DNA from: a virus
IMG/VR virus record: IMGVR_UViG_3300010413_000018
Location: 1 to 64,000 of that record
DNA length: 64,000 nt
Reading direction: 5' to 3' (one strand)
Below, one piece after another: positions 3,991 to 18,490 of the stretch. Position 1 is the first letter of the stretch, and the number at the start of each line of letters is the position of its first letter. The notes beneath the pieces were generated by a model that was not told the origin of the DNA, did no database searches, and saw only the letters and a list, made by a program, of their open reading frames with translations. The position numbers were made by a program, and so were the translations under genes.

Positions 3991-4242
3991 TTACCCTTCG
4001 CCTTCTTCTTCGTACATGTCATTGGCGTCAGCTAAACGTTGTTCGTCTGTTTTTACGCTTAGACCGAATTGTTTTCTTAATTTAGTCGGTATTGTAACCA
4101 GTTTAGCCGGATTGTTTGTGTGCACCAACCTGTATGCAATTCCAAGTTCCTCCGGTATCGGTTCGCCGTAGCAAAGGCGGCAGAACTTTTCTCTGCGACC
4201 GCTACAGCGCGGGCAAACTACTTTTTCAGTATTACTGCTCAC
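3991..4242 (-). CDS. ZR-family small two-CxxC protein (ZR1), GTG start
   Basis: 83 aa, and defines the family used below. A CPRC knuckle (10-13) and a CRLC knuckle (21-24) followed by YG are likely to hold one zinc ion, like half of a DnaJ cysteine-rich domain. Then come Pro, LxxAY and a hydrophobic helix, and a second amphipathic helix with LR (about 55). The tail is acidic (EEEGEG). Start is GTG at 4242 inside a GTGAGCAGTAATACTG string that is also the intergenic hairpin element. It overlaps ZR2 by 11 nt and is last of a long co-directional chain. Biochemical role unknown. Confidence 0.85.
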   Translation of the reverse strand: MSSNTEKVVCPRCSGRREKFCRLCYGEPIPEELGIAYRLVHTNNPAKLVTIPTKLRKQFGLSVKTDEQRLADANDMYEEEGEG

Positions 4243-4474
4243 GCTGTAAGATCTTTCTTAATTTCAATACGTGCTGAATACGCACGTACCCATCGGTCAT
4301 CATTAGTATGTAAGCCGCAGCGATCTCTTCAATGACTTGGCCGGTATTATCACACAACGCGCAAATGTCAGCGTTATAGGTCGTGTCAGCGCCAACACAA
4401 TGGAACCCTCTATTTTGCTCGCGCACCGGAGTGCAACGCGGGCAGGGAGTCAGTTTGGCGTCGTCTTGGCTCAT
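4232..4474 (-). CDS. ZR-family protein (ZR2)
   Basis: 80 aa. Knuckles are CPRC (11-14) and CALC (38-41) with a 23-residue linker that holds a spare Cys and His (25-26). AAAYILMM follows. The ATG at 4474 overlaps the upstream stop as ATGA, which decides the start over an in-frame ATG 15 nt further up. The C-terminal helix ends in KLRKILQREQ. The longer, polar linker is the part that differs most from its neighbours. Confidence 0.85.
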   Translation of the reverse strand: MSQDDAKLTPCPRCTPVREQNRGFHCVGADTTYNADICALCDNTGQVIEEIAAAYILMMTDGYVRIQHVLKLRKILQREQ

Positions 4475-4695
4475 TTCGCATGCCCCCAACGTTCCTCGTA
4501 AACATTTGGTAAGTCAAAAGCGCGCCGCAGCTCATCACACTGTTCTGAACTCGGCACTTTGCATTCTTCGAAGCCTTCACGCAACAATAAATAAGCAGTG
4601 CGCAGATCAGCAGGGATCTCGCGATCGTAGCACAAACGACACGCGTACATATATCCACCACAGCGCGGGCATTGTACTGCTTTCCTGGTCTTCAT
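4471..4695 (-). CDS. ZR-family protein (ZR3)
   Basis: 74 aa with a minimal linker: CPRC (9-12), CRLC (19-22). TAYLLL and the helix QCDELRRAFDLP follow, the latter very close to EQLRRNFDLP of ZR8. The start ATGAAG overlaps the stop of ZR4 by 4 nt. With ZR4 it forms a pair that looks duplicated at ZR9/ZR10. Confidence 0.85.
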   Translation of the reverse strand: MKTRKAVQCPRCGGYMYACRLCYDREIPADLRTAYLLLREGFEECKVPSSEQCDELRRAFDLPNVYEERWGHAK

Positions 4696-4904
4696 GGCGC
4701 TATCCCTGCTTTGTCTAGCTTTTCAATAATGCGATCGTACTCTGCCCACATAAAAGGCCCGTCATCGTCAGGTAGCAGAAGCTCGTACGCGGCCAAACGC
4801 TCTTTTGATACCCACCCTTTACCTTTACACATACCACAACCGCACCAACCGGCTCGCTCGCACTGAGGACAGCGCACTTTTCCTTTTCTTGGGTTACTGC
4901 TCAT
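4692..4904 (-). CDS. ZR-family protein (ZR4)
   Basis: 70 aa. CPQC (12-15) and CGMC (23-26) with an additional Cys at 21. AAYELLL follows. It begins MSSN, the same N-terminus as ZR1, and ends IIEKLDKAGIAP, nearly the same end as ZR10. It overlaps ZR5 by 11 nt and ZR3 by 4 nt. Confidence 0.85.
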   Translation of the reverse strand: MSSNPRKGKVRCPQCERAGWCGCGMCKGKGWVSKERLAAYELLLPDDDGPFMWAEYDRIIEKLDKAGIAP

Positions 4905-5187
4905 TTTGTAACTCCGCGAGTAACTGTAAAACCGTGCTCTCTAATGGACGCCAAACATACTTACCTAAATCAGGTATGATCAAACGGACCGCAACCGCAT
5001 AATGAGTCGGCACTACACCGCAGCCAGTGCAAAACACACATACAATATCGTGGTCATCATGAAGTATCTGTTTCTTTGTGTTCACCCAGAGACGAGGTTC
5101 CTTGCTTGACGGTAGGCTTTTACCGCGCGTTAGTTTTCCGTACCCGTAACAAATGGGGCACATTTCTCTTTTAGTGTTAATGCTCAT
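4894..5187 (-). CDS. ZR-family protein (ZR5), long linker
   Basis: 97 aa. CPIC followed by YGYG (10-17) is DnaJ-like; the second knuckle CVFC (50-53) lies 36 residues on, with an extra Cys at 56. The linker is basic and contains HDDHD. The AY motif has become YAVAV, so this is one of the more divergent members. Starts MSIN, and overlaps ZR6 by 4 nt. Confidence 0.8.
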   Translation of the reverse strand: MSINTKREMCPICYGYGKLTRGKSLPSSKEPRLWVNTKKQILHDDHDIVCVFCTGCGVVPTHYAVAVRLIIPDLGKYVWRPLESTVLQLLAELQNEQ

Positions 5188-5384
5188 TCTGTATCCATTT
5201 GTCGGGTTAGTTTAGCAATTTCATAAAACTGCAGAAATCCGTCTTCATCTGCCAGTAGCGCGTACGCGGTAGCCAACGATCTCGGCACGCGCCAATTAGC
5301 TAAACACAATGGGCATAACACGCTCCGGCCGGTATGCGCGCACCTAGGACAATCTACCAAATCATTGTTATCCTGACCGTTCAT
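5184..5384 (-). CDS. ZR-family protein (ZR6)
   Basis: 66 aa, among the shortest. CPRC (12-15), CPLC (24-27), then VPRSLATAYALL and a short C-terminal helix. The N-terminus is polar and acidic. Seven bases separate it from ZR7 downstream, one of few junctions in the chain without overlap. Confidence 0.85.
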   Translation of the reverse strand: MNGQDNNDLVDCPRCAHTGRSVLCPLCLANWRVPRSLATAYALLADEDGFLQFYEIAKLTRQMDTE

Positions 5385-5391
5385 AGCGCGT

Positions 5392-5613
5392 TCACTCGTT
5401 TTCCATTGCTATTAAATTCTCTCGCAACGCTTTGGCTTCCGAGGTAAGGCTCATCACTATTTCTTTTCCAGTGTCTGAGTCAATTGTTAACGGAAATCTC
5501 ATATAATATGCGGCAGTCCACGATTCAGGTACGCCGCGCTGACCTTGACAAAATGAGCAAAGCGCACGGCAGCCACAACGTGGGCATGCAACCCAACGTT
5601 CATACCTGCTCAT
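5392..5613 (-). CDS. ZR-family protein (ZR7)
   Basis: 73 aa from the ATG at 5613, chosen because it overlaps the stop of ZR8 as ATGA. CPRC (10-13) with Cys15, then CSFC (19-22) and QG. TAAYYM replaces the usual AYxLL. An unusually long polar stretch precedes a final helix rich in Glu and Leu. Confidence 0.85.
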   Translation of the reverse strand: MSRYERWVACPRCGCRALCSFCQGQRGVPESWTAAYYMRFPLTIDSDTGKEIVMSLTSEAKALRENLIAMENE

Positions 5614-5849
5614 TCCCAATCCTTATTTACTGGTAAGTCAAAGTTCCGCCGTAACTGCTCACATTTTGCTTCTGAAAGCCCAAAATACTTATTACCACTA
5701 GACATCAATATGTACGCTACTCTCAGCTCAATTGGAATCCTTTTTCCGTAGCACAATGGACACTTCGATAAAACACCATCGCACCAAGGACACACTTCTT
5801 CCTGCGGTATCATTGGGCTAAATAATTCTTCGTTTACTTCGTCTGCCAT
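5610..5849 (-). CDS. ZR-family protein (ZR8)
   Basis: 79 aa. A 19-residue acidic N-terminus precedes CPWC (20-23) and CPLC (30-33), with only six residues between the knuckles. VAYILM and EQLRRNFDLP follow; the latter is almost shared with ZR3. Overlaps ZR9 by 16 nt. Confidence 0.85.
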   Translation of the reverse strand: MADEVNEELFSPMIPQEEVCPWCDGVLSKCPLCYGKRIPIELRVAYILMSSGNKYFGLSEAKCEQLRRNFDLPVNKDWE

Positions 5850-6079
5850 CGTTCAATATCCATTAATAATGCTGCGGTTTCTGGTGGCGATGGGTGCACT
5901 GGGTAGCCGCGTTCAGTGCTTAGTAAAAAACTGTACGCGGTAGCTAAGTCTTCAGGCACTTTGTGCTTACCGCGACATAGCGTGCAACTCCCAGCGTAAA
6001 TACGATCTCCGTCGTACGGCCAATTCAACGCGCAACAACGCGGGCAGTTTACCATTGGTTGCGTCTTCCTTTTCTTCAT
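5834..6079 (-). CDS. ZR-family protein (ZR9)
   Basis: 81 aa from the ATG at 6079 (ATGA overlap with ZR10; an upstream in-frame ATG would extend far into ZR10). MKKRK start resembles MKTRK of ZR3. CPRCC (12-16), CTLC (32-35), then KVPEDLATAYSFLL. The C-terminal part has a Pro-rich insert (PVHPSPPE). Confidence 0.85.
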   Translation of the reverse strand: MKKRKTQPMVNCPRCCALNWPYDGDRIYAGSCTLCRGKHKVPEDLATAYSFLLSTERGYPVHPSPPETAALLMDIERWQTK

Positions 6080-6318
6080 GGTGCTATCCCGACGTTCTTG
6101 AGCTTGGTCAGTATTTCTATCCACTGGTCAACGCTTAAAATCGGTCCTCCTCCGGCCCAAAACTGTACGCCTTCCGGTAGTAGCATCGTAAATGCCACGT
6201 GCCGTTCAGGCGTCAAATAGCCTGTGCCACGACATAAACCGCAGTACTTGTACTTAAATGTCCCTCCTCTACCAGTAAGGCAGGCCGGACACTGTATTAA
6301 TTCTCCTTTAGATTTCAT
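6076..6318 (-). CDS. ZR-family protein (ZR10)
   Basis: 80 aa. CPAC (10-13) and CGLC (26-29) followed by RGTG. HVAFTMLL stands in for AYxLL. The insert FWAGGGP is Gly-rich. The C-terminus LTKLKNVGIAP echoes ZR4, and in both cases the stop is overlapped by an ATGAAG start. Confidence 0.85.
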   Translation of the reverse strand: MKSKGELIQCPACLTGRGGTFKYKYCGLCRGTGYLTPERHVAFTMLLPEGVQFWAGGGPILSVDQWIEILTKLKNVGIAP

Positions 6319-6530
6319 TCGCCGATCACTTCCTTACGTAGCTTCTCCAACCGTTCTGCCATCGCCCAAACGTCGTACTCCTGTAAAGCTCGTTCAACAT
6401 CATCCTTAACCAACCAAAAAGCCGCGTTTAATGCTGGAGATACGTAACCGCGCCCTAAACACAGTTGACACGTGCCGATTGAAACGTACTGACAAAACTG
6501 CGCTGGGCACACTATCCGGCTCTTCCTCAC
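6315..6530 (-). CDS. ZR-family protein (ZR11), altered first knuckle
   Basis: 71 aa. The first knuckle is CPAQFC (8-13), with four residues between the cysteines instead of two. The second is normal, CQLC (21-24). AAFWLV follows, and the C-terminus is a charged helix LEKLRKEV. Metal binding may be changed or lost. Overlaps both neighbours by 4 nt. Confidence 0.8.
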   Translation of the reverse strand: MRKSRIVCPAQFCQYVSIGTCQLCLGRGYVSPALNAAFWLVKDDVERALQEYDVWAMAERLEKLRKEVIGE

Positions 6531-6808
6531 GTCTTCCTACCCTTCCTCAGTGCTACCAAGTCTTCATAATGCGCGAAGTAATCGTCGTCTTCTTCTTTTT
6601 GTGTTAACAGCACGTACGCGATTTTATCTTCTGGAGTCACCTTTTTAGTACCACAACAAAGTGGACAAGTAACGAATTTAAAATCCCAGCGTGGATTGGC
6701 TTTCCTAATTACTGTTTCTTCAGGAACGATTCCATAATATTCGTACGGTGCACAATATACCATGCCTTCATTAGAACAAAGCGGACATTTAACTTTTTTA
6801 GTACCCAT
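6527..6808 (-). CDS. ZR-family protein (ZR12), long linker
   Basis: 93 aa from the ATG at 6808; a longer form from 6847 would overlap ZR13 by 50 nt and has no better start site. CPLC (8-11), lone Cys19, CPLCC (48-52). The 36-residue linker is aromatic-rich (YEYYG, RWDFKF). IAYVLL follows. The C-terminus is acidic then basic (RKGRKT). Confidence 0.8.
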   Translation of the reverse strand: MGTKKVKCPLCSNEGMVYCAPYEYYGIVPEETVIRKANPRWDFKFVTCPLCCGTKKVTPEDKIAYVLLTQKEEDDDYFAHYEDLVALRKGRKT

Positions 6809-7085
6809 ACTTATCCCATAAGTGATCAACTTCAACATTGAACTCAAGCGCTTGATAGGTATGCAGACAGTCTGTTTCCAAGTCAGGATGCTTTAGATAC
6901 AGAGCCGCGCTCACCGGTTCAGGCAGTTTGCCCGTACCTTTACAAATTGGGCAAGGCTTTTGATTATAATGAACGCCAGGAACATCAGGTGGCACTACAA
7001 AGCCTGACTGAATCCAACATAAGCGATCCACCCATTTTACTCCTTCACATACGGGGCAAAGAATCCGTTTTACGCGCTTACTCAA
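6798..7085 (-). CDS. ZR-family protein (ZR13), TTG start
   Basis: 95 aa if started at TTG 7085, which follows AAAGAGG at good spacing and overlaps the stop of ZR14. An ATG-only reading would begin at 7160, deep inside ZR14. CPVC (10-13), Cys23, CPICKGTG (45-52), the last being a textbook DnaJ-type CxxCxGxG. SAALYL replaces AYxLL. Confidence 0.75.
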   Translation of the reverse strand: MSKRVKRILCPVCEGVKWVDRLCWIQSGFVVPPDVPGVHYNQKPCPICKGTGKLPEPVSAALYLKHPDLETDCLHTYQALEFNVEVDHLWDKYGY

Positions 7086-7383
7086 AATACCTCTTTCTTT
7101 GTTTTTTAGACAAACTAATCCCGTCTGGACTTTGCATCTTAAAGTAGCACCCATGATCAAAAAACTGATGAAACGGCATCTTTAGCCCATCGACTTGCGT
7201 TCTTATAGTCCATATTTCAGATACACTAACGCGCTCTACACTCAAACTGTCGCTAACAAGTAATAAGTACGCGGAAGCTAGTGCAGCCGATACTTTACGC
7301 TGCTGGCTACAAAGGAAGCACGTTCCTTTATGCTGCACATCTTTACAGCGCGGGCACGGTACCTTTTCATGATTTTTTATCAT
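7078..7383 (-). CDS. ZR-family protein (ZR14), extended C-terminus
   Basis: 101 aa. CPRC (10-13), CFLC (22-25), SAYLLL. About 35 residues more than the family norm follow the last helix, basic and aromatic, ending KKQRKRYFE. The extension overlaps ZR13's start region by only 8 nt, so it is not an overlap artefact. Confidence 0.8.
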   Translation of the reverse strand: MIKNHEKVPCPRCKDVQHKGTCFLCSQQRKVSAALASAYLLLVSDSLSVERVSVSEIWTIRTQVDGLKMPFHQFFDHGCYFKMQSPDGISLSKKQRKRYFE

Positions 7384-7585
7384 ATAATAAATCTATTTTC
7401 ATTTGGCTAACATCATCGATAGCCGGTGGAACGTCGGGCGTGTTCGCACACAATAGCGCGTAACCGATCATTATTATTTCCGGTATTGGCTTTCCGTGGC
7501 ACAGCCCACAGCCTTTCCACGCTGGAGTTTCTGGGCTTAAAATATGACACCCACAACGCGGGCATGTTAACGACGGATCGCTCAT
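7367..7585 (-). CDS. ZR-family protein (ZR15)
   Basis: 72 aa. CPRCGC (8-13), CGLC (26-29) then HGKPIPE. IGYALL follows. The linker holds a Trp (PAWKG). The C-terminal helix is QMKIDLLYDKKS. Overlaps ZR14 by 17 nt and the upstream non-ZR gene by 4 nt. Confidence 0.85.
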   Translation of the reverse strand: MSDPSLTCPRCGCHILSPETPAWKGCGLCHGKPIPEIIMIGYALLCANTPDVPPAIDDVSQMKIDLLYDKKS

Positions 7586-7770
7586 GAAGCCATCAGCTGA
7601 CGGTTAAACTCCACCGTTATTGGACCGCTGAACACTTCCCCACCGTCAGCATCGGTGCACACCATGTAGTCTTCCTCCGACACTGGGGCGATCTTCAGCT
7701 TTTCACCGTCAAACTCAATACGTACAAGGCGTCCGTCTTTTAGTTCGAGCGTTATTTTCGTCTCTTTCAT
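7582..7770 (-). CDS. Small non-ZR protein in the ZR chain
   Basis: 62 aa, not recognised and without cysteine pairs. It looks like a small beta-rich protein (ITLELKDGRLVRIEFDGEKL). TAGGAGTACCAA gives a good ribosome-binding site for the ATG at 7770. First gene of a minus-strand transcript ending in the ZR1-15 chain, back to back with the divergent lipoprotein gene at 7830. Confidence 0.8.
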   Translation of the reverse strand: MKETKITLELKDGRLVRIEFDGEKLKIAPVSEEDYMVCTDADGGEVFSGPITVEFNRQLMAS

Positions 7771-7799
7771 TTGGTACTCCTATGTAAAATTGCTACTAT
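7771..7799 (+). promoter_or_regulatory. Promoter for lipoprotein gene
   Basis: TTGGTA (7771-7776), 17-bp spacer, TACTAT (7794-7799) on the plus strand, about 30 bp before the lipoprotein start. Confidence 0.6.
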
Positions 7800-7829
7800 T
7801 TAGTTAATGCTCGGACGTTGGAGATTTGA

Positions 7830-8003
7830 ATGAAAAAAGTGATTTTCCTTTTGTTGGTCGCGGTTTCTTTACTAGGTAGCTGCTTGCTAATTGACTCAGA
7901 TATTGACGTCGACAGCGACATCACCATCAATAACGATCTTCCACCCAATAAACTAAATGTTGCTTTTGACGACGACGCTGGAGTAGATCCCGATCTGTTT
8001 TAG
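7830..8003 (+). CDS. Small predicted lipoprotein
   Basis: 57 aa: a short basic N-terminus MKK, hydrophobic core, then lipobox LLGSC with Cys18 as the predicted lipidated residue. The mature part is very acidic (repeated Asp) with PP. GGAG lies 7 nt before the ATG and a -35/-10 pair lies upstream. Likely exported and anchored in a membrane. Candidate roles are an outer-membrane spanin or a superinfection-exclusion protein; neither is shown. Its last 77 bases overlap the 3' end of ZR16 on the other strand. It is the only plus-strand gene within 3991-9909. Confidence 0.75.
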   Translation: MKKVIFLLLVAVSLLGSCLLIDSDIDVDSDITINNDLPPNKLNVAFDDDAGVDPDLF

Positions 8004-8250
8004 TGTAACCAGGCAACGGAATTCCCATTTCTTCCATAAACGCTTGCAAGTCCGGGCCAGTAGGTGCGCTCGCCCCAAGCTTTAGTGCAAACGCGGTCAC
8101 TACTGTTTGATCCAACTTTTTAGATCCACGGCACAACGGACACATATCACCTTTAAAAATACTTTTAGGGAATATGCGATAGTGGCCATCCGCTGTTGCC
8201 ATCAGTACAACTTCCCCTTTCCCACCACATAATGGACATTTTTCCATCAT
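7927..8250 (-). CDS. ZR-family protein (ZR16)
   Basis: 107 aa. CPLCGGKG (5-12) and CPLCRG (37-42), with a 28-residue linker. TAFALKL follows. The last 25 residues (QRRRQKQH and on) are antisense to the Asp-rich end of the lipoprotein gene, so this tail may be shaped by the overlap. Start overlaps ZR17's stop as ATGA. Confidence 0.8.
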   Translation of the reverse strand: MMEKCPLCGGKGEVVLMATADGHYRIFPKSIFKGDMCPLCRGSKKLDQTVVTAFALKLGASAPTGPDLQAFMEEMGIPLPGYTKTDRDLLQRRRQKQHLVYWVEDRY

Positions 8251-8396
8251 TTCTTTTTAGCTCCAAAGCGCTTAGCGATTCGTGTGAATTCGGTGTAATT
8301 CGGCAGCTTATCAACCGTGTCTACCAATATCAGGTAAGCGGCATGCAGAGCAGGCGTTACTTTTGATTTACCATTACAAATTGGACATGGCACCAA
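8247..8396 (-). CDS. Half ZR protein (ZR17), single CxxC
   Basis: 49 aa from TTG 8396 (GTG 8393 also possible). It keeps only one knuckle, CPICNGKSKV, then AAYLIL and the C-terminal helix. The codon chain up to the ZR18 stop has no second CxxC, so this looks like a ZR gene that has lost its first knuckle. Its stop is overlapped 4 nt by the ATG of ZR16, as between intact neighbours, which argues it is still translated. No clear ribosome-binding site. Confidence 0.6.
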   Translation of the reverse strand: MVPCPICNGKSKVTPALHAAYLILVDTVDKLPNYTEFTRIAKRFGAKKK

Positions 8397-8400
8397 CTCA

Positions 8401-8586
8401 TTATTTAAACATACTGACAAGTTCTCTAACCTGAGTTCCCGGTATTAAAGTTTTACGCTCATCTTCTAATAAAATGTACGCTGTACGCAATTCTTCAGAA
8501 ATCGGCTTACCTTTACATAATGCACACAACGCGTCTCTTCTCGGTGCGTAGCAGCCACAGCGCGGGCACGGTTTTTCATTCGCCAT
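8401..8586 (-). CDS. ZR-family protein (ZR18), near-minimal
   Basis: 61 aa, the shortest complete member. CPRCGC (7-12), CALCKGKPIS (21-30), LRTAYILL, then VRELVSMF. Because it has little else, it is a good core template for the family. Overlaps ZR19 by 11 nt. Confidence 0.85.
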   Translation of the reverse strand: MANEKPCPRCGCYAPRRDALCALCKGKPISEELRTAYILLEDERKTLIPGTQVRELVSMFK

Positions 8587-8890
8587 TATACTCGTCTTCT
8601 CCTACGTCAATGCGTAGTTGCTGTAAGTTAAAAAACAAGTCTGAGTACCTACGCCACCTTAGATCTCTATCAATCTGATCGACGACCAACAAATAAGCCG
8701 CGTTGAGTTCTTTGGATATCGCTTTGCCGTGGCATAACAAGCAACCCACCTCAATCTTACCGCATGTAGGGCACCCGCCGTACTTTAATAATTGCAGTTG
8801 CGGCTTAATAGGCAAACCGTGACAAAACGGGCACTCATTGATCAATACTTTATAAATAGTTTTACAATATGGACATCGAATAACGCGCAT
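8576..8890 (-). CDS. Double ZR protein (ZR19), four CxxC
   Basis: 104 aa with four knuckles: CPYC (6-9), CPFCHG (20-25), CPTC (40-43), CLLCHGKAIS (50-59). The first pair is followed by PIKPQLQLLK, a worn copy of the region before the AY helix; the second pair by AAYLLV. Best explained as an in-frame fusion of one truncated and one complete ZR unit. Shares a single base with the upstream gene. Confidence 0.85.
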   Translation of the reverse strand: MRVIRCPYCKTIYKVLINECPFCHGLPIKPQLQLLKYGGCPTCGKIEVGCLLCHGKAISKELNAAYLLVVDQIDRDLRWRRYSDLFFNLQQLRIDVGEDEYNGE

Positions 8891-9244: not shown

Positions 9245-9469
9245 TTATTTTTGTACCTTATCTTGCGCTTTCAGCATTAAAATTAGGTCACGCGTCTCAA
9301 TGCCAGTCGGATGCGTATTCCCGTGCATAATCAAAAGGTACGCAGTTACGTAATACTCAGGAACCGGCACTCCACCGCACAATTGACACCAGGACGTGCC
9401 ATCAGCGCGTCTAATACCGCGCCCACGGCAACGCGGGCAGTTATAAGGCTCTAGTGTCGGTGTGCCCAT
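9245..9469 (-). CDS. ZR-family protein (ZR20)
   Basis: 74 aa. CPRCRGRG (11-18) and CQLCGG (28-33), linker with Trp. TAYLLI follows. The last helix LILMLKAQDK lacks the usual LR pair. Overlaps ZR21 by 29 nt. Confidence 0.85.
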   Translation of the reverse strand: MGTPTLEPYNCPRCRGRGIRRADGTSWCQLCGGVPVPEYYVTAYLLIMHGNTHPTGIETRDLILMLKAQDKVQK

Positions 9470-9656
9470 AGCGCTTTCTTAACTCTTCAATATGCTTAAC
9501 TTCGTTACACTCTAAGGCGCGCCCCCAGTAATCCGGGAATCCGTATAAACGATAAGCAGCAGCCAATTCAGTTGGAACGTAGCGCACTCCTGCGCACAGA
9601 TAACACGATCCTAAATACGTTCGACCGCAGTTACATCTAGGGCACCTTACATCCAT
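9441..9656 (-). CDS. ZR-family protein (ZR21)
   Basis: 71 aa. CPRCNC (5-10), CYLCAG (18-23), AAAYRLY, then an aromatic loop (GFPDYWG) and IEELRKRYG. First ZR gene of this minus-strand cluster; no strong promoter was identified in the 46 bp upstream. Confidence 0.85.
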   Translation of the reverse strand: MDVRCPRCNCGRTYLGSCYLCAGVRYVPTELAAAYRLYGFPDYWGRALECNEVKHIEELRKRYGHTDTRAL

Positions 9657-9909: not shown

Positions 9910-9991
9910 ACAAGTATTGTGCCAGCTCGTATATTAATGATCAAGTTACTGGTTATTTTGATGTAAGTTACTGTAAGCATAATTATTTTAT

Positions 9992-10038
9992 TTGCAACGT
10001 TACTTTTTATTTGCAAACGTAACAAAATGAAGTATGCT
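9992..10038 (+). promoter_or_regulatory. Tandem-box promoter P1
   Basis: TTGCAA at 9992 and again at 10011 (19 bp apart, separated by ACGTTACTTTTTAT), then a 16-bp spacer and TATGCT (10033-10038). Start is predicted about 7 nt on, at the A of ATGGAC (10045). The proximal TTGCAA serves as -35; the distal box is extra and conserved in nine other promoters, so it may be an activator or operator site. Confidence 0.8.
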
Positions 10039-10750: not shown

Positions 10751-11014
10751 ATGCCAAAGCAAGAAATGGTGATGTGCCCGCGATGCTACTTTTTTTGCGT
10801 GGCACCACCACGCCAAGGGGAAGAGTGTCATACTCAATGCGCGCTATGCGGTAATAAAAAGCAAGTTCCAGAAGATCTTGCTACCGCATACGCGCTAGTT
10901 GAAGACCACCTTCACGGCCACCCTACCACCAACGAAACGATCCGGCTAAAAAACGATTACTGGGGATGTGAATGGCGCCTAGAAATTGAACAGTCTAAAA
11001 ATCATCCCAAATAG
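10751..11014 (+). CDS. ZR-family protein (ZR22), plus strand
   Basis: 87 aa. CPRC (9-12) and CALC (30-33) with two spare cysteines (16, 26). KQVPEDLATAYALV is close to ZR9. Third gene of the P1 operon, immediately after the preceding stop. Its last 20 nt overlap the end of ZR23 coming from the other strand, so the two share a convergent junction without a terminator. Confidence 0.85.
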   Translation: MPKQEMVMCPRCYFFCVAPPRQGEECHTQCALCGNKKQVPEDLATAYALVEDHLHGHPTTNETIRLKNDYWGCEWRLEIEQSKNHPK

Positions 11015-11297
11015 ACTTATTTTTAACTAATCGGTACCACTTCGGTAAATCACGCGATAACCGTGCGGTTTCTTTATTGTTTTTCTCTCCGCTGTAAGTT
11101 TGGCGAACTTTCCGAGCTACGTCTTCATTCTTAAAACCTGACTTATCGTCACTGTCGTATAATAACCGATACGCGGTACTCATTTCTTCCGTAACCGATC
11201 GCGCTCCTTCGCATAACCGGCAGCCGTTAGGTCGGCGCCATGGGCTACCATGACACATCGGGCACGCTACGTTTTCTTTCTTACGCTTGGGCATCAT
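10995..11297 (-). CDS. ZR-family protein (ZR23), basic tail
   Basis: 100 aa. CPMCHGSPW (12-20), CRLCEG (26-31), STAYRLL. After the last helix a 30-residue Lys/Arg/Asn-rich extension follows (SGEKNNKETARLSRD). Overlaps ZR24 by 17 nt. Confidence 0.85.
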   Translation of the reverse strand: MMPKRKKENVACPMCHGSPWRRPNGCRLCEGARSVTEEMSTAYRLLYDSDDKSGFKNEDVARKVRQTYSGEKNNKETARLSRDLPKWYRLVKNKSIWDDF

Positions 11298-11514
11298 AAT
11301 CCTTTCTCAAGCTTAGTGCAGTTTCTCGCGAAACTGATTCTCCAACGTTCGAAATAAGCGCGTAAGCGGTTGCTAGATCTGAATTGACACTATTTGTCCC
11401 GTAGCATAAAACGCAGTCAGTAAACCCAAAATATCCGCCGTCAACGTCTACGCCACCACAGCGCGGACATTCCACCTTACTTAGATCGCCGTCGATTTTT
11501 CTGTCGCTGGGCAC
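11281..11514 (-). CDS. ZR-family protein (ZR24)
   Basis: 77 aa. CPRCGG (16-21) and CVLCYG (34-39); the linker is Gly/Asp/Phe-rich (GVDVDGGYFGFTD). NSDLATAYALI and SLRKDY follow. Overlaps ZR25 by 38 nt. Confidence 0.85.
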   Translation of the reverse strand: MPSDRKIDGDLSKVECPRCGGVDVDGGYFGFTDCVLCYGTNSVNSDLATAYALISNVGESVSRETALSLRKDYDAQA

Positions 11515-11716
11515 TAAAGTCCTTTTTCAACTGATAAATCTCGTTTGAAGATGGCGCCGTACCGTCTTCATGCTTCAAAAGTAAATACGCGGTTTCCAAG
11601 TTTTTTGAAACGTAGCCGCGCGTCCCACACAAAAAACACACGCACGTCTCGTTCCACGCGTTTTTCATACCGGCCGTACCGCCACAATGCGGGCAGTCTT
11701 TATGCTTCTTAGTCAT
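11477..11716 (-). CDS. ZR-family protein (ZR25)
   Basis: 79 aa. CPHCGGTAG (8-16), Cys25, CFLCGTRGYV (27-36), ETAYLLL. A basic tail (RQKNRRRSK) lies within the overlap with ZR24 and could reflect that overlap or nucleic-acid binding. Confidence 0.85.
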   Translation of the reverse strand: MTKKHKDCPHCGGTAGMKNAWNETCVCFLCGTRGYVSKNLETAYLLLKHEDGTAPSSNEIYQLKKDFSAQRQKNRRRSK

Positions 11717-11903
11717 AGCCTAAGTCTACCCTTACTTTTATTGTTTCTTCGATCGTTAACCAGCCACCGGTTGAAGCGTCAACTGTAAGCTTGTAAGCGG
11801 CAGCCAAATCTTCGGACACACGCCGCGTATTGGCGCACAACGAACACGGAACGCCGATCCCGTCGCAGCGCGGACACACTTCACTGTGGTCGTTGTTTAT
11901 CAT
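11709..11903 (-). CDS. ZR-family protein (ZR26)
   Basis: 64 aa from the ATG at 11903; starting at 11957 would add 18 residues that only retrace ZR27 in another frame. CPRCDGIG (10-17), CSLC (20-23), AAAYKL. Very short linker of six residues. Confidence 0.8.
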   Translation of the reverse strand: MINNDHSEVCPRCDGIGVPCSLCANTRRVSEDLAAAYKLTVDASTGGWLTIEETIKVRVDLGYD

Positions 11904-12159
11904 ACCCAAACAACCTGCGTAGCTCGCGCACTTCCCGCGCTTCCGGATGGGCCTCATCCTCTCCGATCAATAAAATATACGCTGTCTTCAGCTTTTCAGA
12001 GATCGGCTTACCCTCACACAGTGAACATTTACGGTACTGCCAGCCTTTTGGCCGCCACCCTTTCTCCGGACAGCGCGGGCACCCGTTTCTAATCCTTCCT
12101 TTGTTAACGCGTGGGGGGCGCCGTACGCGCCCCAAACCCCAGCCTCTAAGTCTTCGCAT
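11881..12159 (-). CDS. ZR-family protein (ZR27), Arg-rich N-terminus
   Basis: 92 aa. A strongly basic 25-residue N-terminus (RRLRGWGLGRVRRPPRVNKG), unlike other members, precedes CPRC (27-30) and CSLCEGKPIS (45-54). TAYILL and VRELRRLFGY follow; the C-terminal half closely resembles ZR18. The basic arm suggests RNA or DNA contact. Confidence 0.8.
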   Translation of the reverse strand: MRRLRGWGLGRVRRPPRVNKGRIRNGCPRCPEKGWRPKGWQYRKCSLCEGKPISEKLKTAYILLIGEDEAHPEAREVRELRRLFGYDKQRPQ

Positions 12160-12557: not shown

Positions 12558-12604
12558 AGTATAACTCATTTTGTTATGGTTGCAAATAAAAAGTAACGTT
12601 GCAA
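12558..12604 (-). promoter_or_regulatory. Tandem-box promoter P2
   Basis: Minus strand: TTGCAA (12604-12599), TTGCAA (12585-12580), 16-bp spacer, TATACT (12563-12558). The boxes are 19 bp apart as in P1. Here the leader is about 60 nt long before the AAGGAG site. Confidence 0.8.
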
Positions 12605-12607
12605 ACT

Positions 12608-13132
12608 TTATTCTTCTGCGTACACCCTTTTCCAACTTTCAATAAACGCCACGATCGCCTTGGCGCCTTCCGGGTTCATTGATATTACAGTATACTCAAA
12701 CGTAGGTGTAAAGTTGGATAGGTGCAGCCACCGTAAAAACTCCATCACCGTGCTGTTCTCGCCTAAGTCGTGATCAAGGTACATATGATCCGGTAAGCCG
12801 TACCTCTGCACGTGAAACTTAGCTAATTCCACACAGTTAGCCCAAATCACTAGCGCGTCCCTCGGTATGTCATGGTCTCGATCCTTTCCGGGATTGCGCA
12901 CGTCATCCAACCACAAAATGTAGCGGATCGGTTGATCCAATAAAACACTTTTTAATTCACGTGCTGACTGCCCGTCTAACCCGTAACAATTATCTGCCTT
13001 CTCTAGAGCGTACGCTGCAGCTAAAAACTCCGGCACTTCACCGGTATCCTCGCAAAAAAAGCATCGCCGTTGACTAAAAAGTGCCTTCGCCATGTAACAG
13101 TGTGGACATTTAGCATACCCTGGTTTCATCAC
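12608..13132 (-). CDS. ZR-cREC fusion protein (ZR28)
   Basis: 174 aa. Residues 1-65 are a complete ZR unit: CPHC (9-12), CFFC (24-27), AAAYAL, ARELKSVL. Residues about 70-170 match the pattern of the cyclic-phosphate-processing receiver-like family (cREC): ILWLDDVRNPG (72-82) with an Asp pair, a central W/A helix, and YLDHDLG (118-124) with Asp-His-Asp. The family assignment is from memory of its signature. cREC is predicted to act on RNA or nucleotide cyclic phosphates, so the fusion hints that ZR domains work near nucleic acids. Overlaps ZR29 by 4 nt. Confidence 0.8.
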   Translation of the reverse strand: MMKPGYAKCPHCYMAKALFSQRRCFFCEDTGEVPEFLAAAYALEKADNCYGLDGQSARELKSVLLDQPIRYILWLDDVRNPGKDRDHDIPRDALVIWANCVELAKFHVQRYGLPDHMYLDHDLGENSTVMEFLRWLHLSNFTPTFEYTVISMNPEGAKAIVAFIESWKRVYAEE

Positions 13133-13332
13133 TTTTCTCCGTACTGAGTGCGTAAATTATCAATAAGCTCAATTATTTGTAAACTCGTGCGCGCTGTATC
13201 AATCATCAAAATGTAAGCCGCGCGCGTACAAGGTTGTACTTTATGCTTACCTTTACATAGCAAGCAATTTTTGAACTTAATCAGCTCACAACGCGGGCAG
13301 TCTACTAGCTGTGTTTTCTTCTTCCAGTGCAT
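13129..13332 (-). CDS. ZR-family protein (ZR29)
   Basis: 67 aa. CPRC (12-15), CLLCKGKHKV (23-32), RAAYILM, IDNLRTQYG. A -35/-10 pair lies just upstream (13339-13366), and the predicted transcript start falls at or next to the ATG, leaving almost no leader. Confidence 0.85.
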   Translation of the reverse strand: MHWKKKTQLVDCPRCELIKFKNCLLCKGKHKVQPCTRAAYILMIDTARTSLQIIELIDNLRTQYGEK

Positions 13333-13366: not shown

Positions 13367-13376
13367 ATATTTTTGT

Positions 13377-13423
13377 TTGCAACGTTACTTTTTATTTGCA
13401 CTAACCCTAAAATGAAGTATGCT
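13377..13423 (+). promoter_or_regulatory. Tandem-box promoter P3
   Basis: TTGCAA (13377), TTGCAC (13396), 16-bp spacer, TATGCT (13418-13423). Predicted start at about 13430, the A of the ATG, so the message is probably leaderless. Confidence 0.8.
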
Positions 13424-13943: not shown

Positions 13944-13965
13944 TTTGCACGTTTCCCAAAAGTTT

Positions 13966-13993: not shown

Positions 13994-14008
13994 AATAAAA
14001 AAAGTTGT

Positions 14009-14055
14009 TTGCAACGTTACTTTTTATTTGCATATCCCACAAAATGAAGTATGCT
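14009..14055 (+). promoter_or_regulatory. Tandem-box promoter P4
   Basis: TTGCAA (14009), TTGCAT (14028), 16-bp spacer, TATGCT (14050-14055). Predicted start at 14062, the A of ATG. Confidence 0.8.
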
Positions 14056-14061
14056 TTAAAT

Positions 14062-14343: not shown

Positions 14344-14352
14344 AGGCAACCA

Positions 14353-14628: not shown

Positions 14629-14637
14629 ATATTTTAT

Positions 14638-14685
14638 TTGCAACGTTACTTTTTATTTGCACGTACCACAAAAGCGTGGTATACT
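14638..14685 (+). promoter_or_regulatory. Tandem-box promoter P5
   Basis: TTGCAA (14638), TTGCAC (14657), 17-bp spacer, TATACT (14680-14685). Closest of the set to a consensus sigma-70 -10. The leader ATGGACAATAACA is shared in spirit with the other transcripts. Confidence 0.8.
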
Positions 14686-14724
14686 TAAAGCATGGACAAT
14701 AACACTGCAACAAGGGGTAAAATA

Positions 14725-15228: not shown

Positions 15229-15237
15229 CCTAACCTG

Positions 15238-15603
15238 ATGAACTCAGCTAAGAAACGCCTTGTAGAATATTTAATCCAGGCCGGATCCGTTTACGTCCAT
15301 CTGCTCACCCGAGCGGATGGCGTTTACGTTCCAGAGCACCTTAAAGCGACTCCCACTACCGCGTTACAGATCGGCTACAACTTTCCCGTGCCGATCCCGG
15401 ATCTAAAAATCGACGATACCGGTATAACCGCCACATTGTCGTTCAGTCGTACGCCGTACCTGTGCTTTGTACCGTGGGACGCAGTCTTCGCGATCACTAA
15501 CGAGGCCGGCCAAGGCGCACAATGGCCTATCGACGGCGAGCTGCTGCTTGAGCCGGAAGATAAACCCGAGGAACGGCGCCCCAAGCTTAGGTTGGTAAAA
15601 TGA
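15238..15603 (+). CDS. sspB: SspB-like ClpXP adaptor
   Basis: 121 aa, near the usual SspB size. Characteristic features appear in order: VYVHLLTRADGVYVPEHL (18-35), LQIGYNFPVPIPDLKIDD, ITATLSFSRTPYLCFVPW (62-79) and GQGAQWP, then a charged tail ending KLRLVK that may serve as the ClpX-binding segment. In bacteria SspB tethers ssrA-tagged and some other substrates to ClpXP. A phage copy could redirect host proteolysis or steer tagged phage proteins. The next ZR gene starts inside its stop (ATGA), so the two are translationally coupled. Confidence 0.85.
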   Translation: MNSAKKRLVEYLIQAGSVYVHLLTRADGVYVPEHLKATPTTALQIGYNFPVPIPDLKIDDTGITATLSFSRTPYLCFVPWDAVFAITNEAGQGAQWPIDGELLLEPEDKPEERRPKLRLVK

Positions 15604-15809
15604 GTCAAGAAACAAAACAAACAATGGCGTGCCCGCGCTGTACTGGCGTGGGTGCGTTTATACCTTGGCATAGTTGTGCACTTTGTCACAACCGTAAAGC
15701 AGTTCCAGTAGAGGTAGGTACCGCGTACAATTTGTTGCGCGACGACGGCGAACCCCACCTATCACAAGTTCGAACTGATTGGCTTTTAAGGCAATTTAAA
15801 AATGAGTGA
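15600..15809 (+). CDS. ZR-family protein (ZR30), plus strand
   Basis: 69 aa. CPRCTGVG (11-18), CALC (26-29) then HNRKAVPVE, GTAYNLL. The 4-nt overlap with sspB and 8-nt overlap with ZR31 put it in the middle of the P5 operon. Confidence 0.85.
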   Translation: MSQETKQTMACPRCTGVGAFIPWHSCALCHNRKAVPVEVGTAYNLLRDDGEPHLSQVRTDWLLRQFKNE

Positions 15810-16038
15810 AAAACTTGTTACCTGCCCGCGCTGTCAGTCTGCTTGGTGGCCAATGGATAAAGATCTGTTATTTCCCGGTTATTGTGCGCTCTGTCAAGGC
15901 GCGCGTACCGTTAGTGCCGCGCTATCAAGCGCCTACCAACTATTTCTCGACGAACGGTTTAAATACGATCAACACCCCGATGCAATTCTTACTCGGACGA
16001 TCGTCAAGACAGTAGACAATGACAGCAACGCGCGCTAA
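15802..16038 (+). CDS. ZR-family protein (ZR31), plus strand
   Basis: 78 aa. CPRC (8-11), CALCQG (28-33), SSAYQLF. The linker (SAWWPMDKDLLFPGY) resembles that of ZR9 (ALNWPYDGDRIYAGS), so these two are probably closer relatives despite lying on opposite strands. Overlaps the next gene by 20 nt. Confidence 0.85.
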   Translation: MSEKLVTCPRCQSAWWPMDKDLLFPGYCALCQGARTVSAALSSAYQLFLDERFKYDQHPDAILTRTIVKTVDNDSNAR

Positions 16039-16393
16039 ACGCCAAGAGCGCGATCGTCAAGCAATGGCTGCGGCGCCGTTAACAAAAGAACTCCATGATT
16101 TAATGCGACGCATGTACCGCTACTCAAAGCACCAGCCGGTAATAAAAAGCCGTAGCTCTTCGCTAAGCTATCAGTGTAACTTCCTCTGGACAGGTATGTA
16201 CTGGGTCGGAACTGGCGTTTACAAGCAACGTATTACCGCCATCAGGGATTTACGTCGGTGCGCCACCAAGCTACTTGAAGCGCAAGTTTGGAGCACCAGC
16301 ACGTACACACGGCTTATTGATCGCTTAGAAGCGATTGAAGTTGGCCTTGCCTTAATCAGTAGCCCAGCTTTAAAGAATATCTGCGATCGTTAG
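16019..16393 (+). CDS. Phage hypothetical protein, helical
   Basis: 124 aa. Basic N-terminal helix (TRAKRQERDRQ), Trp/Tyr-rich middle (FLWTGMYWVGTGVYK), and C-terminal LIDRLEAIEVGLALI. The last motif has a counterpart in the proteins at 17820 and 27772, so these ZR-linked genes may be distant relatives. Last of the P5 operon; its 3' end overlaps ZR32 by 24 nt from the opposite strand. Confidence 0.7.
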   Translation: MTATRAKRQERDRQAMAAAPLTKELHDLMRRMYRYSKHQPVIKSRSSSLSYQCNFLWTGMYWVGTGVYKQRITAIRDLRRCATKLLEAQVWSTSTYTRLIDRLEAIEVGLALISSPALKNICDR

Positions 16394-16633
16394 ATCAACG
16401 GTCAAGCTTAATACCGACGTCTCATTCAACGGGTACGTCTGTGTATCAGCTCCAAACACTAACTGAAACGCTGCAACACGCTCTTCAGTAACTTCTTTTT
16501 TACCTTTACAAAAAGTACAAATGTCACCGCGCGCGTTTTCCGGCCTCTGGCTCGCAATGTAACGTATTGGCCAGCCAAACTTGTAAACTCGGCCGTCGCC
16601 GCGACAAACCGGACACCTAAGCCGCTTACTCAT
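16370..16633 (-). CDS. ZR-family protein (ZR32)
   Basis: 87 aa from the ATG at 16633 beside the ZR33 stop. CPVCRGDG (7-14), CTFCKGKKEV (39-48), 28-residue basic linker (FGWPIRYIASQRPENARG), AAFQLV. The C-terminus is hydrophobic and lacks LR. Confidence 0.8.
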   Translation of the reverse strand: MSKRLRCPVCRGDGRVYKFGWPIRYIASQRPENARGDICTFCKGKKEVTEERVAAFQLVFGADTQTYPLNETSVLSLTVDLTIADIL

Positions 16634-16838
16634 CCCGATCCTCAAGTTCATAGCGCACTTGTCTTGCGTCTAAAATAGACGGTAAATAGCCGTCTTCAGT
16701 GCCCATAAAAGCGTACGCTGTCGCTAGCGCTTTATAGATGCGCTTTGCATCGTCGCACAACGCGCACGGTTCCCCGCAGCTGGTTTCGATAAGAAACGGC
16801 TTATAGCTACCGCCTTTACAGCGCGGACAATCAACCAC
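16626..16838 (-). CDS. ZR-family protein (ZR33)
   Basis: 70 aa. The knuckle starts at residue 4 (CPRCKGGS), then Cys21 and CALC (25-28). TAYAFM follows. C-terminal helix is acidic (RYELEDRDE). Overlaps ZR34 by 8 nt. Confidence 0.85.
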   Translation of the reverse strand: MVDCPRCKGGSYKPFLIETSCGEPCALCDDAKRIYKALATAYAFMGTEDGYLPSILDARQVRYELEDRDE

Positions 16839-17097
16839 GATGACTACTCTCTAAATCAGCGATCAACTGACTAACGAACTTGATTGTGCGCACAACTGGA
16901 TTCAAAAGTGCTATCGCGGTGTAGGCCTCTTCAGTTACCCGTTGTGCTCCCTGACAAAGTGGACACGGGATGGGCTCAGCGCCTCCTAAGTTATAGCGCA
17001 CCAATTGATCATTCCACGCCCAATAAATTCCATCAACGCAAACCACCGTCCCCACTCCTTGGCAAACCGGGCATCTATACGTTTTAACGGCCGTCAC
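16831..17097 (-). CDS. ZR-family protein (ZR34), long linker
   Basis: 88 aa. CPVCQGVG (9-16), Cys20, CPLCQGAQRV (45-54). The 32-residue linker contains YWAWNDQLVRYN. YTAIALL replaces AYxLL. Overlaps ZR35 by 4 nt. Confidence 0.85.
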   Translation of the reverse strand: MTAVKTYRCPVCQGVGTVVCVDGIYWAWNDQLVRYNLGGAEPIPCPLCQGAQRVTEEAYTAIALLNPVVRTIKFVSQLIADLESSHRG

Positions 17098-17372
17098 TGC
17101 GCCCTCCGATACGTTTTTCGTAGCTCGTCAATGTCTTCGAAAAAGTCAACCTTATTATTTAATGTTAAAGAAAACGCAATGGACAGCTCTTCGTCCACGT
17201 CACACGCGCCGTAACAAAGTGGGCATCTGCGCACTGCTGTAAATCCGTAGCGCTTCCATTTTTTACGATCTTTAAAAGTCACATTATGATACGGCGCTAG
17301 TGTCAAACGACTCACTCTAATTTCGCCAGCTCCTCCACATACCGGACACGTGACTTTTTTACTGCGTGGCAT
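17094..17372 (-). CDS. ZR-family protein (ZR35), basic long linker
   Basis: 92 aa. CPVCGGAG (9-16) and CPLCYG (50-55) with 37 residues between, very basic (FKDRKKWKRYGF). SIAFSLTL then IDELRKTYRR. The conserved CxxCxGxG of the first knuckle is the clearest DnaJ-like feature here. Confidence 0.85.
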   Translation of the reverse strand: MPRSKKVTCPVCGGAGEIRVSRLTLAPYHNVTFKDRKKWKRYGFTAVRRCPLCYGACDVDEELSIAFSLTLNNKVDFFEDIDELRKTYRRAQ

Positions 17373-17601
17373 ATGACTTCCTAAATTCTCTTAGTTCTTC
17401 GATTGTGGGATACCTATTAGTTTCCTTAAAAAGAGCATACGCGGTAAGCATCTCACGATCCGGTATTGCGCCTTTACCTTCGCATAATGGACAAGGGTAG
17501 CTATCCCACACTAAACGTTCTTCACCTTCACGTATGTACGCCACTGTCTTAAGCCCATGACAATGTGGACAATTCAATGGGCGCCCTCTACGCTTCGCCA
17601 T
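17359..17601 (-). CDS. ZR-family protein (ZR36), RGRP start
   Basis: 80 aa. MAKRRGRP resembles an AT-hook core and precedes CPHCHG (11-16) and CPLCEGKG (37-44). TAYALF and LREFRKSY follow. The RGRP tripeptide-plus-arginines suggests minor-groove DNA contact; this is a suggestion from the motif alone. Confidence 0.85.
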   Translation of the reverse strand: MAKRRGRPLNCPHCHGLKTVAYIREGEERLVWDSYPCPLCEGKGAIPDREMLTAYALFKETNRYPTIEELREFRKSYATQ

Positions 17602-17827
17602 AACCCATCTCCACGCGTAGCTGTTTAATATCAGCAGAGTTTAAGTAGGTATTCTGGCGCTTTAAAATGAATGCAGTTGCCAATAGCCTAATGACCTTCT
17701 GCTTGCCTAAACAAAGCGCACAAGGATCTGGCGTATACTTCCATTCTCCCGATTTCTTGTCGTAGCCAGCGTACACTCCGTAATATCCAGTGCCTTTACA
17801 GGCTGGACACTTTACCTTTTTAGACAC
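17588..17827 (-). CDS. ZR-family protein (ZR37)
   Basis: 79 aa. CPACKGTG (7-14) and CALCLGKQKV (36-45), linker Tyr/Lys-rich (YYGVYAGYDKKSGEWKY). ATAFIL and KQLRVEMGY follow. Overlaps the upstream non-ZR gene by 8 nt. Confidence 0.85.
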   Translation of the reverse strand: MSKKVKCPACKGTGYYGVYAGYDKKSGEWKYTPDPCALCLGKQKVIRLLATAFILKRQNTYLNSADIKQLRVEMGYGEA

Positions 17828-18218
17828 TAATACGATCTCCTTCTGCTAGTAAGCGGAGTGCGCCTTCTACCGCGTCCAATTGATCCCAAAACTCTTCTAC
17901 TCCGTTATGCTCCCACTGACTACATTTGATAGGCTGTACTTTTTTAAATACAATATCTGCATACGCACGAAGTAAGCGTAAACGAGAAAGTGCTTGAGAG
18001 CGAGATATAATCGCTGCAGTCGTCTTGAAGTAAAACCGTTCAAACGTAGCGCCGTACTGCGCTTCAAAATCTGCATGCCCCCGACATAAAAACCCTAGTT
18101 CAATGATGATCGTTTCAAGGCTATACACTTGGTTAAAATAATATGTATCAGGTACGGTTTGAGCACGCACCTTTAAAAAGTTTTCAACCTGCTCTGTAGA
18201 TAACCGCATCATCGGCAT
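17820..18218 (-). CDS. Phage hypothetical protein, helical
   Basis: 132 aa, no cysteine knuckles. Helical throughout; C-terminal WDQLDAVEGALRLLAEGD aligns by eye with LIDRLEAIEVGLALI of 16019. Contains IIIELGFLCRGHADFE. Overlaps ZR38 by 10 nt. Function unknown. Confidence 0.75.
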   Translation of the reverse strand: MPMMRLSTEQVENFLKVRAQTVPDTYYFNQVYSLETIIIELGFLCRGHADFEAQYGATFERFYFKTTAAIISRSQALSRLRLLRAYADIVFKKVQPIKCSQWEHNGVEEFWDQLDAVEGALRLLAEGDRISV

Positions 18219-18490
18219 TGTACGTCACTCCGTAACTGACGCAGCTCTTCATCTTCTGGAACTTCATCGTCATCCCAATCAGCGGTCACTAGCGCGTACG
18301 CGGCGTACAACTCATTTGAAATTAAACCTGCTCCTTCGCACAATCGGCAATTATTCCATATTATGTTTCGTTGTGCAGGTTCATTGACTGGTGTTTGATC
18401 ATAAATAAGCGTATAATCGCCGCCTCTCCCATCGCAAGCCGGACATCTATTTCTTTCTTCTTTTGTTGGCCTGATTTTCCTGCTTTGCAT
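18209..18490 (-). CDS. ZR-family protein (ZR38)
   Basis: 93 aa from the ATG at 18490; earlier starts would retrace the gene at 18447-18632. CPACDGRGG (16-24), CRLCEGAG (48-55), 28-residue linker, AAYALV. An acidic insert DWDDDEVPEDEE precedes LRQLRSD. Confidence 0.75.
   Translation of the reverse strand: MQSRKIRPTKEERNRCPACDGRGGDYTLIYDQTPVNEPAQRNIIWNNCRLCEGAGLISNELYAAYALVTADWDDDEVPEDEELRQLRSDVQCR

What the first reader, a model, noticed from the sequence alone, without database searches (positions are those of the whole stretch)
3991..18490. Expanded family of 39 small two-CxxC proteins (ZR family) in tandem
Reading the frames side by side shows one architecture repeated 39 times (38 here and one at 27458): CPxC, a variable linker of 6-37 residues, CxLC(x)G, a Pro/Val turn, (A/T)AYxLL and a second helix with LR. 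Overall identity is low, so this is an old, diversified expansion. Most junctions are 4-29 nt overlaps, implying coordinated translation. The knuckles resemble half of a DnaJ zinc module, but no DnaJ domain is attached. Dedicating about 10 kb of phage genome to one small fold is exceptional. Inference: a diversifying battery for host takeover, anti-defence or nucleic-acid binding.
Basis: partly seen in the sequence, partly recalled or inferred. Interest (0 to 1): 0.95.

Follow-up and report, generated by a model that had tools for sequence, protein, structure and literature searches.

The report
Phage with sixty small zinc proteins
A 140-kb uncultured phage devotes about a quarter of its genes to one family of tiny zinc-binding proteins, some 60 copies that share a fold but have almost no surface residues in common, which looks like a kit of diversified binders for manipulating its bacterial host.

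Summary
The record is a 140,728-bp virus contig, and its other end (122-140.6 kb) holds 19 more such genes: 58 ORFs with 60 domains, about 23% of predicted genes and 10.6% of the DNA. A profile trained on one end finds every copy at the other; shuffled genomes give none. Two confident AlphaFold models show a DnaJ/anti-TRAP-type zinc module followed by two helices. Copies average 28% identity (maximum 46%). Neighbours are no more alike than random pairs, so the expansion is old, scrambled and retained. Only zinc ligands, one glycine and hydrophobic positions are conserved; net charge runs from -7 to +12. One copy is fused to a predicted cyclic-phosphate-processing (cREC) domain. Many copies lie in operons behind a repeated, phage-specific promoter box. 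No other public viral contig found has such an array; a 55%-identical terminase relative has one copy. Phage G has a precedent of about 35 copies of an unrelated zinc ribbon. Best explanation: an early battery of small zinc-scaffold adaptors or antagonists, anti-TRAP-like, each binding a different host or rival protein. Function is inferred, not shown.

The parts
3991..4242 (-). ZR gene
4232..4489 (-). ZR gene
4471..4695 (-). ZR gene
4692..4904 (-). ZR gene
4894..5187 (-). ZR gene, long linker
5184..5384 (-). ZR gene
5392..5619 (-). ZR gene
5610..5849 (-). ZR gene
5834..6124 (-). ZR gene (start probably internal, near 6082)
6076..6318 (-). ZR gene
6315..6530 (-). ZR gene; first knuckle CxxxxC
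6527..6847 (-). ZR gene, long linker
6798..7160 (-). ZR gene, long linker
7078..7383 (-). ZR gene with C-terminal extension
7367..7585 (-). ZR gene
7927..8250 (-). ZR gene with C-terminal extension
8247..8420 (-). ZR gene lacking the first knuckle
8401..8586 (-). ZR gene
8576..8890 (-). ZR gene with two ZR modules (the first truncated)
9245..9469 (-). ZR gene
9441..9656 (-). ZR gene
10751..11014 (+). ZR gene
10995..11297 (-). ZR gene with C-terminal extension
11281..11514 (-). ZR gene
11477..11716 (-). ZR gene; AlphaFold model 1 (pLDDT 90.8)
11709..11957 (-). ZR gene
11881..12159 (-). ZR gene
12608..13132 (-). ZR domain fused to cREC_REC (PF20274, E=3.1e-12)
13129..13332 (-). ZR gene
15600..15809 (+). 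ZR gene
15802..16038 (+). ZR gene
16370..16651 (-). ZR gene, long linker
16626..16838 (-). ZR gene
16831..17097 (-). ZR gene, long linker
17094..17372 (-). ZR gene, long linker; AlphaFold model 2 (pLDDT 82.9)
17359..17601 (-). ZR gene
17588..17827 (-). ZR gene
18209..18625 (-). ZR gene with N-terminal extension
27458..27757 (+). isolated ZR gene
9991..10015 (+). 25-bp promoter box TTTGCAACGTTACTTTTTATTTGCA, ahead of genes 10027, 10382 and ZR 10751
12581..12605 (-). 25-bp promoter box ahead of gene 12163 and five ZR genes (10995-12159)
14637..14661 (+). 25-bp promoter box ahead of genes 14692, 15238, ZR 15600 and ZR 15802
20330..20354 (-). 25-bp promoter box ahead of the run that ends in seven ZR genes (16370-18625)
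13376..13400 (+). 25-bp promoter box (genes without ZR)
14008..14032 (+). 25-bp promoter box (genes without ZR)

Best explanation
The ZR genes are one homologous family of 60-130-residue proteins. Each folds as a single DnaJ/anti-TRAP-type zinc hairpin followed by two short helices. An old expansion left about 60 retained copies in the variable, early-type regions at both ends of the contig, in overlapping-gene operons; several of these operons begin at a shared phage-specific promoter box. The fold is held by the four cysteines, a glycine and buried hydrophobic residues, while the linker, the loop between the helices and the exposed faces vary freely. The most likely working is that the module is a cheap, evolvable, zinc-pinned scaffold. 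Each copy binds a different host (or competing-element) protein and blocks or redirects it, as anti-TRAP does to TRAP, so the set acts as a host-takeover/counter-defence battery. Shown: family, fold class, copy number, age, genomic setting, cREC fusion. Inferred: zinc occupancy, early timing, partner binding, host targets.
For: Family and number. Scaffold logic: conserved columns are the Cys ligands, P, L, G, V, A, Y/F, L, L only; net charge -7 to +12; identity 28% (maximum 46%) with no recent duplicates and no neighbour effect. Retention of 58 intact divergent genes in a 140-kb genome implies separate selection. Setting: fifteen consecutive ZR genes at 3991-7585, 26/36 close junctions overlapping, shared promoter box, Bro-N, P22_AR_N and a DNA methylase as neighbours, and a ZR-cREC fusion; cREC is predicted to process cyclic ADP-ribose or 2',3'-cyclic nucleotides in phage-host conflict (PMC7824862). 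Analogy: SPO1's 26-gene takeover module of small early proteins in a terminal region (PMC6873191).
Against: No partner, expression or phenotype data. No orthologues close enough for dN/dS, so diversifying selection is not demonstrated. Foldseek matches are individually insignificant (E 0.17-0.7). The same zinc hairpin also occurs in nucleic-acid-binding or RNA-polymerase-binding proteins (Q antiterminators, UvrA), so fold alone does not choose partner type. Anti-TRAP has one C-terminal trimerising helix (PMC11255114); ZR has two, and its oligomeric state is untested.
Confidence: 0.5

Rival explanations
1. The ZR proteins are nucleic-acid-binding regulators or DNA-structuring proteins, each recognising a different DNA or RNA site, as suggested in the literature for the zinc-ribbon expansion of Bacillus phage G.
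For: The jumbo-phage survey proposes this for the ~35-copy phage G zinc ribbons (PMC7824862). 58% of ZR proteins are net positive. The zinc hairpin occurs in UvrA.
Against: Net charge spans -7 to +12 with mean about +1.7, and no basic residue is conserved except a partly conserved R/K in helix 2. There is no HTH. About 60 regulators for roughly a dozen recognisable promoter boxes is disproportionate. Phage G's zinc ribbon is a different family (hhalign 6.4%).
Confidence: 0.22
2. The proteins are relatives of Q-type antiterminators that act on RNA polymerase, many of them on particular operons.
For: Weak PHROG hits to 'anti-termination protein Q-like' (phrog_6060, best 5.9e-4; phrog_127). Lambda Q appears among Foldseek hits of the long-linker model.
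Against: Only 5-6 of 59 members hit those PHROGs. The shared part is only the generic zinc hairpin; the Q DNA-binding and polymerase-binding parts are absent from 60-130-aa proteins. Foldseek E-values are about 0.7.
Confidence: 0.1
3. Dosage or metal role: the copies together buffer zinc or supply one redundant activity (such as a DnaJ-like holdase) in bulk.
For: Nearly all keep the zinc ligands; bulk transcription from multiple operons is plausible. BSD2/DnaJ zinc domains are chaperone modules.
Against: Selection for dosage predicts near-identical copies or gene conversion, yet the maximum identity is 46% and neighbours are not more alike. Metallothionein-like function would not need the conserved AYxLL and LR helices.
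Confidence: 0.08
4. Mostly non-adaptive: copies accumulate by duplication and exchange in a permissive accessory region and are poorly functional.
For: Patchy, small early genes; no clear relatives elsewhere.
Against: All 58 frames are intact with ligands kept at saturating divergence, and there are no obvious pseudogenes; phage genomes lose unused DNA quickly (general knowledge). No recent duplicates are seen.
Confidence: 0.06

Closest known systems
Anti-TRAP / RtpA (PF15777, NF058604; PDB 2bx9, 3lcz)
   Same: Small single-zinc protein, CPxC...CPxCxGKGV then a helix; hhalign 95.6% with alignment reaching the helix. It works by binding a protein partner and blocking it (PMC11255114).
   Different: 53 aa, one C-terminal trimerising helix, Bacillus chromosomal gene. 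ZR has longer linkers, AYxLL plus a second LR helix, about 60 copies in a phage; members checked against Pfam fall below its cut-off.
DnaJ central zinc domain (PF00684) and BSD2
   Same: CXXCXGXG-type zinc hairpin.
   Different: DnaJ has four CXXCXGXG motifs and two zincs; ZR has two motifs, and no J or substrate domain.
Zinc-ribbon expansion of Bacillus phage G (~35 copies; YP_009015343.1)
   Same: Lineage-specific expansion of small zinc proteins in one phage (PMC7824862), some of them clustered.
   Different: Unrelated zinc-ribbon sequence family (hhalign probability 6.4); 497-kb genome. The present case has more copies in a genome 3.5 times smaller.
Q-type antiterminators (phrog_6060, phrog_127; lambda Q 7ubm)
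   Same: DnaJ-like zinc hairpin, weak profile hits.
   Different: No DNA- or polymerase-binding domains; multicopy.
[quoted passage not shown]
   Same: Block of small, tightly packed, presumably early genes in a terminal region (PMC6873191).
   Different: SPO1 proteins are not described there as one family; here most of the block is a single fold.
Single-copy small zinc proteins of prophages (CPHCAGQGYL..CPVCCGNERISADDARAYA) and of contig IMGVR_UViG_3300037014_000112
   Same: Same order of knuckles and helix, HMM E 1e-5 to 2e-7.
   Different: One copy per record.

Membership tests
Anti-TRAP (RtpA) | Sequence above the curated family cut-off | tested here: not met
   Best Pfam member scores about 21 bits against a cut-off of 32. 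NCBIfam RtpA best E 7.9e-6 in 19/59 members; its cut-off was not displayed.
Anti-TRAP (RtpA) | CxxC-CxxC zinc hairpin followed by a helix | tested here: met
   Alignment A1, AF2 models, hhalign 95.6%.
Anti-TRAP (RtpA) | Trimerisation and TRAP binding | not testable with these tools
   Needs biochemistry.
DnaJ / Hsp40 | J domain | tested here: not met
   No J domain hit among the ZR proteins scanned; predicted proteins are 57-194 aa.
DnaJ / Hsp40 | Four CXXCXGXG motifs | tested here: not met
   Two CxxC per domain.
Q antiterminator | Q-type DNA/RNA-polymerase-binding body plus zinc finger | tested here: not met
   Only the zinc hairpin matches, weakly.
Phage G zinc-ribbon expansion | Homology to YP_009015343.1 family | tested here: not met
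   hhalign probability 6.4; only two marginal hits of A1 in phage G.
Lineage-specific expansion of one gene family in a phage | Many homologous copies in one genome, few or none in relatives | tested here: met
   58 ORFs; BLAST component of 50 against at most 3 in the 118-kb and 112-kb relatives; 1 clear copy among the terminase relatives searched.
Host-takeover module | Early expression and growth inhibition of host | not testable with these tools
   Only genomic setting available.

The most novel reading that the evidence does not exclude
The phage carries a repertoire built on one scaffold: about 60 fixed, diverged variants of a minimal zinc domain, each a specific binder of a different host or mobile-element protein, so one evolvable fold supplies most of the host-takeover and counter-defence arsenal. 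This would be among the largest single-family expansions known in any phage relative to genome size.
Probability: 0.35. Interest if true: 0.88.

Novelty: new variant of a known kind. Interest (0 to 1): 0.74.

Why it matters
Phages usually take over cells with sets of small proteins that share nothing. Here one minimal fold makes up about a quarter of the predicted genes, with four zinc ligands and a few buried residues fixed and the rest free. If members bind different host proteins, this is a natural binder library and a directly testable route to unknown host or defence targets. It also gives the multi-copy zinc-protein expansion of phage G a second, unrelated instance, suggesting that small zinc folds are a recurrent raw material for such batteries.

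Tried and rejected
tblastn of single members against 50,697 cultured phages: nothing convincing. Whole-family patterns and sub-family alignments against IMG/VR and GTDB contigs: no second array, only single-copy prophage proteins and chance hits; near-identical records may be hidden by the tool, so uniqueness is relative to what is searchable, and these patterns have only 20-25% sensitivity per copy. Whole-record HMM search of terminase relatives: one clear copy, but the nearest relatives are short fragments. Joining the two contig ends: no terminal repeat and no continuous frame, so I do not claim that the two ZR blocks are contiguous. Recent tandem duplication rejected. A structured leader RNA at the promoter box rejected (z=0.22). 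Membership in DnaJ, anti-TRAP, Q or the phage G zinc-ribbon family rejected as above. The generic sigma-70 scan of the region was at chance level, so promoter claims rest on the repeated 25-bp box only.
Full report
What was checked. The window is the first 64 kb of a 140,728-bp IMG/VR virus record; I fetched the rest. The record is a tailed phage with a large terminase subunit, portal, tail sheath and baseplate-like genes, a UDG-PolA-type polymerase, a RecA-like protein and a replicative helicase (named from sequence and general knowledge). A 24-kb stretch of it has no megablast match in 50,697 cultured phage records.

The observation. An HMM started from the CPxC...CxLC...AY pattern converged on 60 domains in 58 ORFs at E<0.01. 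Controls: no shuffled genome yields a hit; training on one genome end and searching the other recovers everything. In a single-linkage BLAST clustering of 250 predicted ORFs, 50 fall in one component, and the next largest has 3; two relatives of 118 and 112 kb have no component above 3. The feature is therefore real and extreme.

Anatomy. At 3991-7585 there are fifteen consecutive ZR genes with nothing between. Of 36 close same-strand ZR pairs, 26 overlap by 1-38 nt, compatible with translational coupling. Linkers between knuckles are shorter in the left block than in the right (p=7e-5). Variants include a two-domain ORF (133777-134361), a two-module ORF (8576-8890), a member with one knuckle (8247-8420) and a fusion to a cREC_REC domain (12608-13132, E=3.1e-12). 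ZR genes are mixed with other small unknown genes, Bro-N and P22_AR_N proteins and a DNA methylase, an accessory-region setting.

Regulation. A 25-bp box, TTTGCAACGTTACTTTTTATTTGCA, occurs eight times exactly and several more times with 2-5 mismatches in the record. It lies upstream of -10-like hexamers (TATGCT, TATACT, TATCCT, TATAAT), often followed by a start codon within about 40 nt; the chance expectation in the window is zero. It lies ahead of runs that include ZR genes at 9991(+), 12605(-), 14637(+), 20354(-) and 131661(-), but also ahead of runs without ZR genes, so ZR genes share the phage's general control rather than having their own. The box is found in no other IMG/VR contig available to the search.

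Fold. AlphaFold2 with the window-only alignment gives pLDDT 90.8 and pTM 0.73 for a short-linker member, and 82.9 and 0.68 for a long-linker member. Both show a zinc hairpin, then the AYxLL helix, then a second helix; the long linker adds a lower-confidence hairpin excursion. Sequence profiles and Foldseek agree on the DnaJ/anti-TRAP/BSD2/UvrA/Q class of zinc hairpin, none strongly enough for membership.

Evolution. Mean pairwise identity over core columns is 28%, maximum 46%. Genomic neighbours are no more similar than random pairs (0.271 against 0.276, p=0.81), so there is no recent tandem duplication. Conserved columns are the zinc ligands, the proline after the first cysteine, a glycine and hydrophobic residues; no surface residue is near-invariant; net charge runs from -7 to +12. 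This is what a scaffold with diversified binding faces would look like. It does not prove binding, and selection on individual sites could not be tested because no close orthologues were available.

Distribution. The terminase led to about 80 IMG/VR relatives, the best about 60% identical once the intein is removed. HMM searches of relatives' whole records and of pattern hits found one clear copy in a terminase relative, immediately upstream of the terminase gene in a 16-kb fragment, and single-copy proteins of the same layout in prophages of another type. No second array was found by two whole-collection motif scans of IMG/VR, one of GTDB contigs, or two sub-family scans. Each motif has only about 20-25% sensitivity per copy, so an array of ten or more similar copies would probably have been seen, but smaller ones could be missed, and near-identical records are withheld.

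Comparison with the known. [quoted passage not shown] I fetched that protein and its detectable paralogues: the family is unrelated (hhalign 6.4%). The present case is a second, independent and denser instance with another fold, hence 'new variant of a known kind'.

Mechanism. I favour a battery of protein-binding adaptors or antagonists working like anti-TRAP (a zinc protein that captures a regulatory protein and blocks it, PMC11255114), deployed in the manner of SPO1's host-takeover module (PMC6873191). The cREC fusion gives one direct link to phage-host conflict chemistry, since cREC is predicted to act on cyclic ADP-ribose or 2',3'-cyclic nucleotides (PMC7824862). Steps shown: family, copy number, fold class, age, setting, fusion. 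Steps inferred: zinc binding, early expression, specific partners, function in takeover or counter-defence. The main rival is sequence-specific nucleic-acid binding.

Noticed in passing
L011:2352-5111 (record 106352-109111, minus): The large terminase gene carries an intein-like insert of about 397 aa (starting CFPEGTLVL, ending VHN) that is missing from the aligned relative.
   Followed up: partly
window 48241-50610 (-): The replicative helicase also looks intein-bearing (insert after GPGGGK, starting CHAKGQGILMADGS and ending TVTHNS).
   Followed up: no
window 9991, 12605, 13376, 14008, 14637, 20354, 24586, 25658, 30643; record 122402, 131661, 137571: 25-bp box TTTGCAACGTTACTTTTTATTTGCA repeated exactly 8 times plus variants upstream of -10-like hexamers; found in no other IMG/VR contig. 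Its recognition factor is unknown.
   Followed up: partly
window 823-997, 1213-1275, 3415-3930: Arrays of diverged 20-bp tandem repeats (AACGTTACCAACGCGTGATG type) flank the left ZR block in non-coding DNA.
   Followed up: no
window 1632-2147: Low-complexity repeats with GCTCCACTATGCTTT-like units next to the contig's left end.
   Followed up: no
window 12608-13132 (-): Fusion of a ZR domain with a cyclic-phosphate-processing receiver domain, cREC_REC.
   Followed up: yes
window 58543-60054 and 56399-57571: Adjacent VWA-like metallopeptidase-type and MoxR-like AAA+ ATPase proteins, resembling the chaperone pair described in jumbo phages (PMC7824862).
   Followed up: no
L015:1474-1698 (IMGVR_UViG_3300037014_000112): In a relative, a single ZR gene sits directly upstream of the large terminase gene.
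   Followed up: partly
L034, L036, L043, L047, L049: Conserved single-copy prophage protein CPHCAGQGYL...CPVCCGNERISADDARAYA with ZR-like layout.
   Followed up: partly
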